Shown here: positions 19,308 through 28,068 of the stretch, in pieces
Layout: each line of letters starts with the position of its first letter
Position numbering within the stretch: position 1 is the first letter of the stretch
Source of the DNA: Ktedonobacteria bacterium
GTDB taxonomy: Bacteria > Chloroflexota > Ktedonobacteria > Ktedonobacterales > JACDGC01
Length of the DNA stretch: 64,000 bases
Assembly (NCBI GenBank): GCA_027459785.1
Contig: DAIDGU010000071.1
Location: 62,001 to 126,000 of the forward strand
Direction: 5' to 3'
The notes under the pieces: model-generated
What the model saw: only the letters and a program-made list of their open reading frames with translations
What the model was told of the DNA's origin: nothing
Databases searched by the model: none
Program-made: the position numbers and the translations under genes

Positions 19308-19811
19308 TCACACGATCCAGGCTTTGCGGCTGGCAAAGATGCGAAGCGCGTCTTCTTGTTCCGCTGCGCTGATCGCGCCGTCGCACCGACGGCGGATCTC
19401 CGCCAGCGCCTCCGCTACTGGCAGGCCGTTGCGGATAAGATATGCCGCCAGCACTGTGCCGGTGCGCCCCTGGCCCATCAGGCAATGCACGGCAGTGGGA
19501 TGCCCCTGCGCGCTCTGTTGGTCGATGAAGGCGATGGCGCGATTTAGTTGGTCCGGCGTCGGCGCATGCAAATCCGGCACTGGCAGGTGCAGCCCGACCA
19601 TATCGCTAGCCGCTAACACTGTATCCGTCAGAGGCGTTTCCGTCAGGGTCAGCACAGCGCGGATGCCGTGGCGGCGTAGCGCAGCCAGGTCGCGTGCCAG
19701 CGCGGCGCGCATCTCCTCCGCCGGTGGGCCGGCCTGCCGCCCCCGTGCGCTGCCGCCCGGCAGTGAACACCCGGCCAATACCCCGTCGATCACCCAATAA
19801 AAGCGTTCCAT
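19308..19811 (-). CDS. dual-specificity/tyrosine protein phosphatase-like
   Basis: P-loop AVHCLMGQGRTGTVLAAYLI (HCX5R). Confidence 0.82.
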   Translation of the reverse strand: MERFYWVIDGVLAGCSLPGGSARGRQAGPPAEEMRAALARDLAALRRHGIRAVLTLTETPLTDTVLAASDMVGLHLPVPDLHAPTPDQLNRAIAFIDQQSAQGHPTAVHCLMGQGRTGTVLAAYLIRNGLPVAEALAEIRRRCDGAISAAEQEDALRIFASRKAWIV

Positions 19812-19975
19812 ACCGAACCGTCTCCCCTGCACATTTTGCTGGTATCTCTAGGATACCAGGGCGCACCGCCTCATGAAATCGGGCATTCCGGCAGGGGAAA
19901 TCAGCAATTTGGGTAGGCGGAGCCGTCCCATTTTATTCGCGCTGGACTCAGTTTAGCTAACGTGGTCCGGCATCG

Positions 19976-20482: not shown

Positions 20483-20800
20483 TTCTTCCACTCCTTTACG
20501 AGACAACGATTTCCTGGTGTCGTTGATGGAGACGCGCCAGCCGCAAGATTTGTTCCCCGCGCGCCCGCACATGGGAAAACTTTCCTTTTTCAGCATAACA
20601 AATGGCGCGAGAGGTAGTTCATCAAACCGGGAATGACCGCTAGAAAGCTGAAGGATTCGCGCGGTGCCACCGAGCGTGGCCGCCATCATCCCCGCCTCAC
20701 CGCCTGATATGGTATGCTAAAGGTGTCAGGATGACGACACGATTAGATAACAACAGCTAAAGGATACAACGGCATGCACGGTACCCTGGAGGATCGCGCT

Positions 20801-22411
20801 ATGAACACCGCCGCGCCGCCCCCCACGCGCCGGGGGCATGTCTTCATCATCTCCGGGCCGTCCGGGGCCGGCAAAGACACTGTCATCGAACGCCTGTTGC
20901 CCCAGGTGCAGGTCGCGCAGGTGGTCACGATGACCGCCCGCCGCCCACGACCGGGGGAGATCGAGGGCGTACATTATCGTTTCGTCACGCCGGAAGTCTT
21001 CGCGGACCTGCGGGCGCGCGGCGAATTGCTGGAAAGCGCGCTGGTGCATGGCAACTGGTACGGCGTGCCGGCGGATGGCGTGCGCGACGCCGTGGCCCAG
21101 GGCCGTGACGTGCTGATCAAGGTTGATCCGCAGGGGGCGCGCACGATCAAGCGCCTGATGCCCGAAGCGATCTTTATTTTCATTCGCCCCGCCTCGCTTG
21201 TCGAATTACAGGCGCGGCTGGTGGGGCGGGCCAGCGAAACCCCCGACGAATTAACGCTGCGCCTGCGCAACGCGGAAAAGGAAATGGCGGATCAGGTGTG
21301 GTTCGACTACGTGGTCGATAACGCCGACGGCCATATCACCGAAGCCGTGGCGCGGGTGCGTGCCATCATCGCAAAATATGCAGAGGGAAAAGTCATGGGT
21401 ATGCACGAAGGCTATGAGCCGTCGGCGACGCGCGAACGCAACGTGGCACTGGAACTGGTGCGCGTGACAGAGGCCGCCGCGCTGAACGCGGCGCTGTGGA
21501 TGGGGCGCGGCGACAAGATCGCTGTGGATGACGCCGCCGTGCAGGCGATGCGCTCCGCGCTGGACGGCGTGGACATGAACGGCGTGGTGGTCATCGGCGA
21601 GGGCGAAAAGGACGAAGCGCCGATGCTTTACGTCGGCGAGCAGGTGGGCAACGGCCACGGCCAGGCACTGGATGTCGCGGTCGATCCGGTGGATGGCACA
21701 ACCCTCACCGCGCTGGGTATCGCGGGTGCCATCGCTGTCGTCGCCACGGCGGAGCGCGGCACGATGTACGCTGCCCCACCCGGCGTCTATTACATGGAAA
21801 AGATCGCGGTCGGCCCCGCCGCCGCCAGCGTCATCGATCTGGATGTCCCCGTGGCGGAAAACCTGCGCCGCGTCGCCCGCGTGCGCGCCTGTGCCATCAA
21901 CGATATCATCGTTACGGTGCTGGATCGCCCGCGCCACGCGCCGATGATCCAGCAGATCCGCGAGGCCGGCGCACGCATTCGCCTCATCCGCGACGGCGAC
22001 GTGATCGCGGCGATCCAGGCGGCGATGGAAGATTATAAAGCGGTGGATGTCTATATGGGCATCGGCGGCGCACCCGAAGCCGTGCTGGCGGCGGCGGCGA
22101 TCAAGTGTCTGGGCGGCGAGATCATCACGCGCGTGTGGCCGCGCAGCGACGACGAGCGCGCCAAGCTGCTGGCCAGCGGCGTAGACCTTCAGCGGATCTA
22201 TCGCACCAACGATCTGGTGCAGGGCGACGATGTTTCCTTCGCGGCGACGGGCATCACCACCGGCGATCTGCTGCGCGGCGTGGAGTTCGTCGGCACCGGC
22301 GCACGCACCAATTCCGTCATGATGCGCGCCCGCTCCGGCACCGTCCGCATGATCGAAGCGCGCCACCGCTGGAAGCAGAAATTTGTGCCGCATGAGCAGC
22401 ACGAGGGCTAG
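20801..22411 (+). CDS. guanylate kinase - GlpX-type fructose-1,6-bisphosphatase fusion (single ORF)
   Basis: Gmk: GHVFIISGPSGAGKDTVIERLL, TARRPRPGEIEGVHYRFV, HGNWYGVP, VDPQGA. GlpX from about 21395: ALELVRVTEAAALNAALWMGRGDKIAVDDAAVQAMRSAL, VVIGEGEKDEAPMLYVGE, AVDPVDGTT, GIGGAPEAVLAAAAIKCLGG, FAATGITTGDLL. No stop between them. Confidence 0.88.
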   Translation: MNTAAPPPTRRGHVFIISGPSGAGKDTVIERLLPQVQVAQVVTMTARRPRPGEIEGVHYRFVTPEVFADLRARGELLESALVHGNWYGVPADGVRDAVAQGRDVLIKVDPQGARTIKRLMPEAIFIFIRPASLVELQARLVGRASETPDELTLRLRNAEKEMADQVWFDYVVDNADGHITEAVARVRAIIAKYAEGKVMGMHEGYEPSATRERNVALELVRVTEAAALNAALWMGRGDKIAVDDAAVQAMRSALDGVDMNGVVVIGEGEKDEAPMLYVGEQVGNGHGQALDVAVDPVDGTTLTALGIAGAIAVVATAERGTMYAAPPGVYYMEKIAVGPAAASVIDLDVPVAENLRRVARVRACAINDIIVTVLDRPRHAPMIQQIREAGARIRLIRDGDVIAAIQAAMEDYKAVDVYMGIGGAPEAVLAAAAIKCLGGEIITRVWPRSDDERAKLLASGVDLQRIYRTNDLVQGDDVSFAATGITTGDLLRGVEFVGTGARTNSVMMRARSGTVRMIEARHRWKQKFVPHEQHEG

Positions 22412-23769: not shown

Positions 23770-24576
23770 CTAACGCCCCTGATAGCCCTGCAAATCCGCG
23801 CTGGAAATTTCCGGTGCGGCTACCAATCGATAATGCTTCTCCTCAACGATTTTGATGTCATCACCATCTTTAACAAACTCAAAAAGCGCGATGACATCTT
23901 GCGCCATGAATTGTGCGGCTATTGGTCGGCACACTAAATCTGGGAATTTGGCAGCACACATCTCGAAATCCTGCTCGATTTGAACAATGCCGATGCGATC
24001 CTTATGACCCTTCGCCTGGATTGGCAGAATATACTGCACGCCACGGCGATCGATCCCGATATATACCTCATCCGTTTCAATTTGGCCTATATCAGGAACG
24101 GTTGTGCGCAAATGGTTTTGCAAAGAATAGCAGGTAACACCTGTAAAAATATCAATCAGGCGATTATAACGAACCTTTGCCAGCAATGCCTGTTCATCAG
24201 TCAGGGCATAGCAAACAACGATACTTGGCGTAGCATCGGGAATTTTGGTCTCGATCAAATGTTCATTTGGTAGGATCGGGATGATTTTTACTGCAACAAA
24301 ACGATAACGCGCGCGGCCAGCAGAGCGGATGATCCATTCCAACCCATCTGGTGCTTTTTGGCGAATAGCTTCCGGTAAATCGCCACGATAGCGAAAGGTA
24401 TAAAGGATATCACCAATATTCTTTGGCAAAGTCATTTGGAGCGATTGTGCCGCCTGCTCAATGTCGTTACGAGTAAACTCAACGACCCGCACACCTTCTT
24501 GATAGTGCCGCAAAAAGATATGCTCGATGATTTGGGCATAGCGATTGGGCTTACGAGGTTCCGGAGCTTCGCTCAT
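23770..24576 (-). CDS. putative type II restriction endonuclease
   Basis: 18 nt downstream of a DNA methyltransferase on the same strand; ETDEVYIGIDRRGVQYILPIQAKGHKDRIGIVQIEQDF resembles a PD-(D/E)XK-like core. Confidence 0.6.
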   Translation of the reverse strand: MSEAPEPRKPNRYAQIIEHIFLRHYQEGVRVVEFTRNDIEQAAQSLQMTLPKNIGDILYTFRYRGDLPEAIRQKAPDGLEWIIRSAGRARYRFVAVKIIPILPNEHLIETKIPDATPSIVVCYALTDEQALLAKVRYNRLIDIFTGVTCYSLQNHLRTTVPDIGQIETDEVYIGIDRRGVQYILPIQAKGHKDRIGIVQIEQDFEMCAAKFPDLVCRPIAAQFMAQDVIALFEFVKDGDDIKIVEEKHYRLVAAPEISSADLQGYQGR

Positions 24577-24594: not shown

Positions 24595-25908
24595 TTAACC
24601 TGGCCAGCGGAGTACGACAACTTCTTCGCGTAGCTGCGCTTTGGTTGCGGTCGCCAGGCGGGTGCGAAAAAGATCGATGCCGACGACTTTATAACCGAGG
24701 GACTCTGCGATCTGGGCCAGCAACATGCCAGTGGGGATCAGCACGCGCAAGAACGATGCTTGATCGCCCACGACATAGGCGAGATGTGCGCCAGGACGCA
24801 GCAGCGGACGCAGGTTGGCGAAATGCCGTGCCATGCCACCGAAGTAGAGCCGCGTGACGCGCGCATACAGGCGCTCGAAGCCGGAAGTCTTACCTAGCGC
24901 GACCCGCCGCGCCTCGATCTCATCGGCGATACGTTGAATCTCAGGGAACTGCGCGACCCAGGCATCATCATCGTCGCCCTGGTACACGTTGCGCGTATTC
25001 GATCGCAGCAGACCGTGCTTGAGGGCACGCAACTCCGCTTTATTCTGGATGAAGCCCAGCAACACCGATTCGAGTCGCGTTGTGCGCGTATAGTCTTTCT
25101 CATTGGGGTAGGGTGGCGAGGTAAAAACGGCGTCGATGGATGCTGGCGGGATGAGTGCGCCCATCTGCCGGGCATCCGCGCGGTACACCTGCGTCGGCAC
25201 ATCGCGCCGAGCATGCACCTGGCGCAGATCATCCGCCAGCGCCCGCATGTTTGTTAGCCAAGGTGCAATCACGGGCGCATCGGCTTGTGGACGACCGACG
25301 CCCACCTCCGGCCCGAAGGTGAGGTTGCTAGCCGAAAAGACTATCGTCTTGGCAAAGGCGAGCAGTGCATGGGCCGTATCTTCATTATCCGGCTGCGCTT
25401 GAATGGCGTCGCGGAGTACCAGCGCTTTGTGCAACGGCAACGGACTGATCGAATTGGCGAGCAGCAGTTTAGTTTGCTCGGCAGTGAGCGAGCGTAGCGC
25501 CTGGGGGGCGGCTACCAACGCTGGAAAGAGGGTGACGTCGTCGATGCCGTCGCTGGCGAGAGTGGCTTGCGCAACGGTGGCGACTGCCTGTGTGCGCCGT
25601 ATCAGCTGATCAGGATCGGGTTGCCATGTGGTTTTGGTTCGGCTGGCGAAATGTGCCAGCGCGTTCGCTTCGATGCCGACGCTGGGGATGCCCAGCTTCT
25701 TGCATTCAACCAAGGTCGTGCCAGTGCCACAAAAAGGATCGAGGACCGTTTGCTCCGGCGTGACGCCGAATCGTTCCAGATAGCTGCGCACGAGATGCGG
25801 CGGAAACGCGAGCACAAAGCGATACCACTCATGGACCGCGCGGTCTTCAGGATACAGTTTGTTGATCGCACTGTTCGCGTCACGGCGGCGGGCGGTCGCG
25901 TAGCTCAT
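24595..25908 (-). CDS. DNA (N4-cytosine/N6-adenine) methyltransferase
   Basis: TVLDPFCGTGTTLVECKKLGIPSVGIEAN (SAM motif I) and VFTSPPYPNEKDYTRTTRLES (TSPPY catalytic motif). Confidence 0.88.
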   Translation of the reverse strand: MSYATARRRDANSAINKLYPEDRAVHEWYRFVLAFPPHLVRSYLERFGVTPEQTVLDPFCGTGTTLVECKKLGIPSVGIEANALAHFASRTKTTWQPDPDQLIRRTQAVATVAQATLASDGIDDVTLFPALVAAPQALRSLTAEQTKLLLANSISPLPLHKALVLRDAIQAQPDNEDTAHALLAFAKTIVFSASNLTFGPEVGVGRPQADAPVIAPWLTNMRALADDLRQVHARRDVPTQVYRADARQMGALIPPASIDAVFTSPPYPNEKDYTRTTRLESVLLGFIQNKAELRALKHGLLRSNTRNVYQGDDDDAWVAQFPEIQRIADEIEARRVALGKTSGFERLYARVTRLYFGGMARHFANLRPLLRPGAHLAYVVGDQASFLRVLIPTGMLLAQIAESLGYKVVGIDLFRTRLATATKAQLREEVVVLRWPG

Positions 25909-26140
25909 CGTGGGCCATCCTCTGTATGAAGTAGCGCTCGCTATTGCACCCATTATCGCACATCCTCACGTCCTCGCGGTGGGTGCGCAGGGTGGCGGGC
26001 GCTGTGCGGCGTTTGACGCCTGAGATCGCGCGGTTCTATAATGGAATGGTGCTGGGAATGGTGCTAAAAATGGTGCTACAACTGGTGGCACCGCGCGTGG
26101 TGTTGGCGTTGGTGGTTGGATAGTTAAGGAGCCGTGGTTC

Positions 26141-26998
26141 ATGCCAGATAGCATGCCGTCGCCCGTGGAGCAGGAGCCGCTCGCGCCAGAAGTGGCGGCG
26201 CAGTATGCGCGCCTGCGCGCGATCGTGCGCGACCTTGGCTCCGTGCTGGTGGCGTATTCGGGCGGGGTGGATAGCGCGCTGTTGCTGAAGGTGGCGCACG
26301 ACGAGCTGGGCGACCAGGCGCTGGGCGTGCTGGCCGTCTCGCCGGCATATGACGATGACGAGACCGCCGCCGCGCTGGCCGTCGCCGCGCAGATGGGCAT
26401 TCCCGTCATCACCGTGACGACGCATGAGATGGAGAATCCGGCGTATGTGGCCAACGGGCCAGATCGCTGCTTCCATTGCAAACAGGAGTTATTCACGCAA
26501 TTGGAGCCGTTGGCGACGCAGCGCGGCCTGGCACACATCGCCTATGGCGTGAACCGCGACGACCTGGGCGATTATCGTCCCGGCCAACGCGCGGCGCGGC
26601 AGCGTGGCGTGGCGGGGCCACTTTTGGAGGCTGGGCTGGGCAAAGCGGAGATCCGCGCGCTGGCGCGTTACCTGGGCGTGCCGGTATGGGATAAGCCGGC
26701 GCTGGCATGTTACTCGTCGCGCATCCCCTATGGCAACGCCGTCACAGTGGAGGCGCTACAGCGCATCGGGCGGGCGGAGCGGGTGGTGCGCGAGTTGGGT
26801 TTTCGCCGCGTGCGCGTGCGGCATCACGACACCATCGCGCGTCTCGAAGTGGACCCAGACGATCTGCCGCGCATCGTCGCGCCGGAGGTGCGCACGGTCA
26901 TCGACCGCGAATTGCGGGCGCTGGGCTATCTTTATATCACGCTGGACCTGCGCGGCTATCGCACCGGCAGCCTCAATGACGCGCTGCATCGCCGGTGA
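26141..26998 (+). CDS. larE: ATP-dependent sacrificial sulfur transferase LarE
   Basis: [26 protein letters not shown]-loop; [49 protein letters not shown]. Confidence 0.9.
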
Positions 26999-28068
26999 TG
27001 CGGGCGCGACCAGAGCTAAAGGACAGTATTGTGGATCTCGATGCTATTAAATCCGCTGTGACGAGCATATTGATCGCCATCGGCGAAGACCCAGAGCGGG
27101 AGGGACTGCGTGGCACCCCGCGCCGCATCGCCGAAATGTACGCGGAAATCTTCGCGGGCCTCAACCAAGATCCCCGCGATGTGCTGCGCGTCGGTTTCGA
27201 AGAGGGCCATGAAGAGATGGTTATCGTCAAAGACATTCCCTTCTATTCCGTCTGTGAACACCATCTGGTGCCGTTTTTCGGCAGGGCGCATGTCGGCTAC
27301 ATCCCCGATGATGGGCGCGTGGTGGGCATCAGCAAGCTCGCCCGCGCCACGGAGATCCTCGCCCGCCGCCCGCAGTTGCAGGAGCGCCTGACAAGCCAAC
27401 TGGCGGAAGCGATCATGAGCGCGATGGCCCCCGCTGGGGTGGGTGTGGTCGTCGAGGCCGAACACCTCTGCTATGATAGCGAGACGGAGATCCTGACGGA
27501 GAACGGCTGGCGGCGCTTCGCCGACCTGCGCATGGAGCGCGTGGCTCAGGTGGACCCCGTCACGCTGGAAAGCTCCTTCGTCACGCCGACCCAATGGTTG
27601 CACTATGACTATCATGGTCCGATGGTGCGCATTTGCTCGGATGATGTCGATCTCTTCGTCACGCCGGATCACCGTATGCTGGTGCAGCGGGCGGAGGAGT
27701 TCCGTCGGGGGCCGGGGGCGTGGCAGTTCGTTGCGGCGCGCGACCTCGATCCCACCAGTTCCTATGTCATCCCCTGCCGCTGCTCGCGGTCCGGTGAAAT
27801 GCGCTGGCACGACCGGCTGGCGCTGCTTGCCCCCGAACACCGCAGCATCGAGCAGTACGACGGCACGGTGTATTGTGTCAGCGTGCCGACCAGCGCGATC
27901 TACGTGCGGCGCAACGGGCAGACGGCGGTGTGTGGCAACTGTATGACGATGCGCGGCGTGAAAAAGCCGGGCAGTCAAACCGTCACCAGCGCCATGCGCG
28001 GCGTCTTCCGCGACAGCGTGGCCACGCGCGCCGAGTTCATGGCGCTCATCCATCATGGGCATTCATAG
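26998..28068 (+). CDS. folE: GTP cyclohydrolase I interrupted by an intein
   Basis: Exteins: [103 protein letters not shown]. Removing the insert leaves about 200 aa, normal for FolE. Confidence 0.93.
27469..27939 (+). mobile_element. mini-intein (157 aa, no homing endonuclease domain) in FolE
   Basis: Block [21 protein letters not shown]; block [12 protein letters not shown]; block [23 protein letters not shown]; block G AVCGN followed by +1 Cys of host FolE. Confidence 0.92.

What the first reader, a model, noticed from the sequence alone, without database searches (positions are those of the whole stretch)
20801..22411. Guanylate kinase fused in one ORF to GlpX-type fructose-1,6-bisphosphatase
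Seen: an uninterrupted ORF carries a complete Gmk (P-loop GPSGAGKDT through the LID region) followed by a complete GlpX (GEGEKDEAPMLY, DPVDGTT, GIGGAPE). The junction is ...AIIAKYAEGKVMGMHEGYEPSATRERNVALEL. Known: these enzymes belong to GMP/GDP synthesis and gluconeogenesis/Calvin-type metabolism and are normally separate. I do not recall this fusion being described. An internal ATG at 21395 has gagggaaa about 7 nt upstream, so GlpX may also be made separately.
Basis: partly seen in the sequence, partly recalled or inferred. Interest (0 to 1): 0.78.

Follow-up and report, generated by a model that had tools for sequence, protein, structure and literature searches.

The report
Fused gmk–glpX gene in Ktedonobacteria
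Two neighbouring housekeeping genes, one for making GDP and one for making sugar phosphate, have become joined into a single gene in one small group of soil bacteria; it is a real and apparently undescribed fusion, but a simple one with no shown new function.

Summary
One open frame at 20801-22411 (+, 536 aa) encodes a complete guanylate kinase, a roughly 10-residue linker and a complete GlpX-type fructose-1,6-bisphosphatase. It holds the only gmk and only glpX found in this genome, which also lacks class I FBPase, RuBisCO and phosphoribulokinase. So the ORF should supply both activities, and GlpX probably serves gluconeogenesis.

It is not an assembly error: a second species of the genus, from an independent metagenome, has the same stop-free fusion, with a linker of equal length but different sequence. 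In 35 of 38 genomes of the class holding both genes, gmk and glpX are neighbours, but only these two are fused; the others have a stop and short gap or a phase-shifted overlap. No other stop-free match spans both domains in 400 Chloroflexota genomes.

Most likely a small deletion or stop loss joined two genes of an ancestral operon, once. A Shine-Dalgarno-like site before the old glpX start in both species suggests, without proving it, that free GlpX is also made. I found no description of this fusion. Interest is modest: a rare fusion of enzymes from unrelated pathways, seen in one genus, with no shown gain from the joining.

The parts
20801..22411 (+). Fused gmk-glpX open reading frame, 536 aa plus stop
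   Evidence: sister-species homologue
20840..21376 (+). Guanylate kinase domain (P0001 residues 23-201)
   Evidence: Pfam PF00625, TIGR03263 over cut-off
21371..21400 (+). Linker of 10 codons (AKYAEGKVMG) between RAII of Gmk and the old GlpX start MHEG
   Evidence: same length, 16 of 30 bases different in the sister species
21383..21397 (+). Possible internal ribosome-binding site and start for free GlpX (GAGGG, 7-nt spacer, ATG 21395)
   Evidence: -6.3 kcal/mol; similar site in the sister species
21437..22366 (+). GlpX class II fructose-1,6-bisphosphatase domain (P0001 residues 222-531)
   Evidence: Pfam PF03320 1-307/307, TIGR00330 over cut-off, 6ayy alignment
20704..20726 (+). Upstream motif GATATGGTATGCTAAAGGTG shared with the sister species, possible promoter
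   Evidence: seen in both sequences; not reported by the consensus scan

Best explanation
This is a real in-frame fusion of two neighbouring genes of an ancestral gmk-glpX operon. It arose once in the ancestor of one Ktedonobacterales genus, through loss of the gmk stop and spacer. Translation from 20801 gives one polypeptide of 536 aa. Its N-terminal half phosphorylates GMP to GDP with ATP, and its C-terminal half hydrolyses fructose-1,6-bisphosphate for gluconeogenesis; each domain works as in the separate enzymes. The short linker is a tether with little sequence constraint. Internal initiation at 21395 may add some free GlpX. Shown here: the single ORF, complete domains, sole copies, conservation in a second species, and separate genes in all other relatives examined. 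Inferred: that the full-length protein is made, that both halves are active, that a deletion was the route, and that free GlpX is also made.
For: Both domains are complete and pass the TIGR03263 and TIGR00330 cut-offs; GlpX aligns over its length with M. tuberculosis GlpX 6ayy. One gmk and one glpX were found in the genome and no class I FBPase. Sister species G001 (Centralia MAG 675) has the same stop-free fusion at 84% identity. Between the two, the gmk domain (dN 0.13, dS 1.14) and glpX domain (dN 0.058, dS 0.58) are under purifying selection, while the linker (dN 0.51) diverged yet kept exactly 10 codons. The genes are adjacent in 35 of 38 genomes of the class that hold both, but fused only in these two. 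In G002, of the same family, gmk ends with a 10-codon tail after RAII and the glpX ATG lies 36 nt after the first base of the stop, so an in-frame deletion would give the observed layout. On the GlpX tree the two fused rows group together within the family (94/94).
Against: Only two genomes carry it. A neutral 10-codon linker would stay free of stops over this divergence with probability about 0.37-0.56 (indels not counted), so selection for the fusion itself is not shown. The structure model is confident only for the kinase half (mean pLDDT 56), so the geometry is untested. There are no expression or activity data.
Confidence: 0.8

Rival explanations
1. Nominal fusion: the stop was lost by chance, GlpX is made mainly by internal initiation at 21395 (21401 or the sister's ATG), and the read-through product is a tolerated by-product with no role of its own.
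For: A GAGGG site precedes the glpX start in both species although its position shifted by about six bases; energy -6.3 kcal/mol, reached by about 9% of in-frame positions. In G003 of the same family the glpX ribosome-binding site already lies inside gmk. Linker divergence is compatible with neutrality.
Against: Without a stop, each ribosome that translates gmk should continue into glpX, so fused protein must be the main gmk product; the internal site is weaker than in most unfused relatives (-8 to -11.6).
Confidence: 0.35
2. Selected bifunctional enzyme: joining the two activities is advantageous through shared dosage, assembly or co-regulation of GTP supply and gluconeogenesis.
For: The fusion is kept in two diverged species with purifying selection on both halves; the gene pair is adjacent in 35 of 38 genomes of the class.
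Against: The two enzymes share no substrate or product; the chance of a neutral linker staying open is about a half; no other lineage of 400 Chloroflexota searched shows it.
Confidence: 0.12
3. Assembly or sequencing error that removed a stop or shifted the frame.
For: Both genomes are MAG-like drafts (88 and about 490 contigs), and all relatives outside the genus have separate genes.
Against: Two independent assemblies show the same architecture with a linker that differs at 16 of 30 bases but has the same length and no stop.
Confidence: 0.02

Closest known systems
Separate gmk and glpX genes side by side in Ktedonobacteria (e.g. Dictyobacter kobayashii, Thermosporothrix hazakensis)
   Same: Same gene order, same strand, same domains; outside the family the kinase is about 41-53% and GlpX about 64-72% identical to this gene
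   Different: A stop codon and usually a few tens of nt (up to about 265 nt before the GlpX domain), or a phase-shifted overlap, separate the genes
Class II fructose-1,6-bisphosphatase GlpX of Mycobacterium tuberculosis (PDB 6ayy)
   Same: Aligned over the whole domain (E 9.6e-108), with GEGEKD.APMLY and DP(V/I)DGTT conserved
   Different: No N-terminal kinase; the crystallised chain carries only a short N-terminal tag
Bacterial guanylate kinase Gmk (TIGR03263; PDB 1znw)
   Same: Complete kinase domain over the cut-off, with P-loop and GMP-binding motifs
   Different: Continues through a linker into GlpX instead of ending in the 10-15 residue tail seen in relatives

Membership tests
Guanylate kinase (Gmk, TIGR03263 / PF00625) | Full-length kinase domain over the curated cut-off | tested here: met
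   TIGR03263 174.9 bits (cut-off 160.45), profile 2-179/180; PF00625 120.6 bits (cut-off 25.2)
Guanylate kinase (Gmk, TIGR03263 / PF00625) | P-loop and GMP-binding motifs present | tested here: met
   GPSGAGKD at residue 19, RRPRPGE at 47, GNWYG at 84 of the 536-aa protein; which motifs bind substrate is general knowledge of the family
Guanylate kinase (Gmk, TIGR03263 / PF00625) | GMP + ATP to GDP + ADP activity | not testable with these tools
   needs an enzyme assay; being the sole gmk found makes it likely
Class II FBPase (GlpX, TIGR00330 / PF03320) | Full-length domain over the curated cut-off | tested here: met
   TIGR00330 373.4 bits (cut-off 259.3), PF03320 1-307/307
Class II FBPase (GlpX, TIGR00330 / PF03320) | Metal and substrate motifs, including the DGTT threonine that is changed in PDB 6ayu and 6ayv | tested here: met
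   GEGEKDEAPM at 266, DPVDGTT at 295, GIGGAPE at 420; alignments to 6ayy, 6ayu, 6ayv
Class II FBPase (GlpX, TIGR00330 / PF03320) | FBPase activity and oligomeric assembly | not testable with these tools
   the model of the GlpX half has low confidence
Operon-derived gene fusion | Relatives keep the two genes adjacent, same order and strand, unfused | tested here: met
   35 of 38 genomes adjacent, only 2 fused
Operon-derived gene fusion | Fusion found in more than one independent assembly | tested here: met
   G000 and G001
Operon-derived gene fusion | Fused protein is expressed as one chain | not testable with these tools
   needs proteomics or a Western blot

The most novel reading that the evidence does not exclude
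A selected bifunctional enzyme in which GlpX oligomers carry tethered guanylate kinase domains, so that GDP/GTP supply and gluconeogenesis are regulated together in this genus, with free GlpX made in addition from an internal start.
Probability: 0.08. Interest if true: 0.6.

Novelty: new variant of a known kind. Interest (0 to 1): 0.3.

Why it matters
It documents a fusion between two housekeeping enzymes of unrelated pathways, one of them (guanylate kinase) generally essential, with separate-gene relatives available at several distances. That makes it a neat natural case of operon-to-fusion evolution. It also points to the more general and unexplained stability of the gmk-glpX gene pair across Ktedonobacteria.

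Tried and rejected
At first I took the 'open_frame_aa' values of G008, G016, G017 and G026 (545-654 aa) as further fusions; direct reading of the DNA shows a stop between the genes in each. Eleven other Chloroflexota glpX loci, chosen mostly for long open frames, were read in DNA; none is fused to gmk. Plasmid records hold no place covering 80% of the protein. A structure prediction from 14 sequences gave a confident kinase half but a poor GlpX half, so no fold search was run. Selection on the linker was tested by simulation and cannot be shown with two species. A consensus promoter and terminator scan found nothing useful. Literature searches for GlpX with guanylate kinase gave no papers; a broader search listed nothing whose title or abstract start concerned this fusion. 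Phyla outside Chloroflexota were covered only by the pattern scan of GTDB genomes, which finds close relatives only.

Full report
What is there. The plus strand of 20801-22411 is one open frame. It starts at ATG 20801 (an in-frame ATG at 20774 is less likely) and ends at TAG 22409-22411. Pfam finds a complete guanylate kinase domain and a complete GlpX class II fructose-1,6-bisphosphatase domain, and NCBIfam's guanyl_kin and glpX equivalog models pass their cut-offs. The GlpX half aligns over its whole length with M. tuberculosis GlpX (6ayy, E 9.6e-108), and the kinase half with solved guanylate kinases such as 1znw. The diagnostic motifs of both enzymes are intact.

Start of the gene. The start at 20801 has a strong Shine-Dalgarno match (GGAGG, -9.3 kcal/mol, against -4.7 for 20774). 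It corresponds to the start ATGGACACG of the sister-species gene. A motif around TATGGTATGCTAAAGGTG upstream is shared with the sister species and may be the promoter, although the consensus scan does not report it.

The only copies found. The genome (4.84 Mb, 94% complete) has one match to the guanylate kinase family and one to the GlpX family, both in this ORF. No class I FBPase, RuBisCO large subunit or phosphoribulokinase was found. Guanylate kinase is generally essential in bacteria (general knowledge), so the fused ORF most likely supplies it. GlpX here is most simply the gluconeogenic FBPase, not a Calvin-cycle enzyme. The genome is incomplete, so a missing second copy cannot be fully excluded.

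Relatives. The order is Ktedonobacterales, judged from the titles of matching records (MGR_bin402, Dictyobacter, Thermosporothrix). Of 47 genomes held for the class, 38 have both genes, and in 35 of these the genes are neighbours in the order gmk-glpX. The exceptions are G018, G035 and G038. Only G000 (this genome) and G001 (same genus; JAJPKG010000029, Centralia MAG 675) are fused. I read the DNA of 26 of the 33 unfused neighbours, and each has the gmk stop before the glpX domain or an overlap in another phase. The other seven were judged from the genome-search tables: five span both genes with one stop inside, and two show the genes as separate neighbouring matches. In 400 Chloroflexota genomes no further stop-free match spans both domains in the listed results (weaker matches are not listed). 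Eleven glpX loci read in DNA, chosen mostly for long open frames, are not fused to gmk. No plasmid record holds such a protein.

Origin. The closest unfused relatives, in the same family, show two arrangements that are each a small step from fusion. In G002, gmk ends with a 10-codon tail after the motif RAII, and the glpX ATG lies 36 nt after the first base of its stop, in the same frame. In G003 the two genes overlap in different phases, and the glpX ribosome-binding site lies inside gmk. In the fused genes, RAII is followed by exactly 10 codons and then the old glpX start (ATGCAC). Loss of the stop and spacer by an in-frame deletion is therefore the simplest route (inference). On a tree of GlpX the two fused sequences group together within this family (support 94/94), so one origin suffices.

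Selection. Between the two fused species, gmk (dN 0.13, dS 1.14) and glpX (dN 0.058, dS 0.58) are under purifying selection. The 10-codon linker has 16 of 30 bases changed and dN about 0.5 but kept its length. That argues against an assembly artefact. It does not show that the fusion is selected, because a neutral linker of this kind would remain free of stops with probability about 0.37-0.56 at the relevant divergence, indels not counted.

Internal start. GAGGG lies 7 nt before ATG 21395 here. In the sister species it lies 5 nt before the glpX ATG, about six bases further downstream. Both have a predicted anti-SD energy of -6.3 kcal/mol, reached by about 9% of in-frame positions in the same ORFs. 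Most relatives with separate genes have -8 to -11.6, the weakest about -4.7. A conserved ability to start GlpX internally is plausible and unproven.

Structure. AlphaFold with the 14 sequences allowed gave a confident kinase fold and a low-confidence GlpX half. I draw no conclusion from it about the geometry. The M. tuberculosis GlpX chain was crystallised with an N-terminal tag, which shows only that a short N-terminal extension is tolerated.

Known or not. Full-text searches for GlpX together with guanylate kinase found no papers. The library is only the open part of the literature. I know of no description of this fusion. As a kind, fusion of neighbouring operon genes is well known; the pair of enzymes is new to me.

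Verdict. This is a real, genus-restricted, in-frame gmk-glpX fusion that probably gives a bifunctional protein, possibly with extra free GlpX. The interest is modest, because nothing yet shows that the joining does more than keep two co-expressed enzymes on one chain.

Noticed in passing
window 26995-28068 (+): GTP cyclohydrolase I (FolE) is interrupted by an insert of roughly 130-150 aa that begins [17 protein letters not shown] and ends ...TAVCGN before CMTMRG; it looks like a mini-intein. FolE models match in two stretches on either side.
   Followed up: partly
window 26141-26998 (+): LarE-type ATP-dependent sacrificial sulfur transferase (TIGR00268) directly upstream of folE.
   Followed up: no
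window 24595-25953 (-) and 23770-24576 (-): DNA methyltransferase-like protein (N6_N4_Mtase) next to an unassigned 268-aa ORF without Pfam match; the pair may be a restriction-modification unit.
   Followed up: no
window 19308-19832 (-): Dual-specificity-phosphatase-like protein (Pfam Tc-R-P / PTP-SAK / DSPc).
   Followed up: no
L033 (JAJPKG010000029.1): The public title calls this MAG 'Proteobacteria bacterium', but the same contig (L041) belongs to G001, which shares its genus with the window's Ktedonobacterales-type genome; the title appears to be a mislabel.
   Followed up: partly
Ktedonobacteria genomes; L087: gmk-glpX adjacency is very stable across the class (35 of 38 genomes with both genes), and G049, of another Chloroflexota family, also has the pair next to each other. 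The reason for the linkage is unknown.
   Followed up: partly
L044 (G004, same family): GlpX of G004 is unusually divergent (end branch 0.98 in the tree) and no gmk was found in that genome.
   Followed up: no
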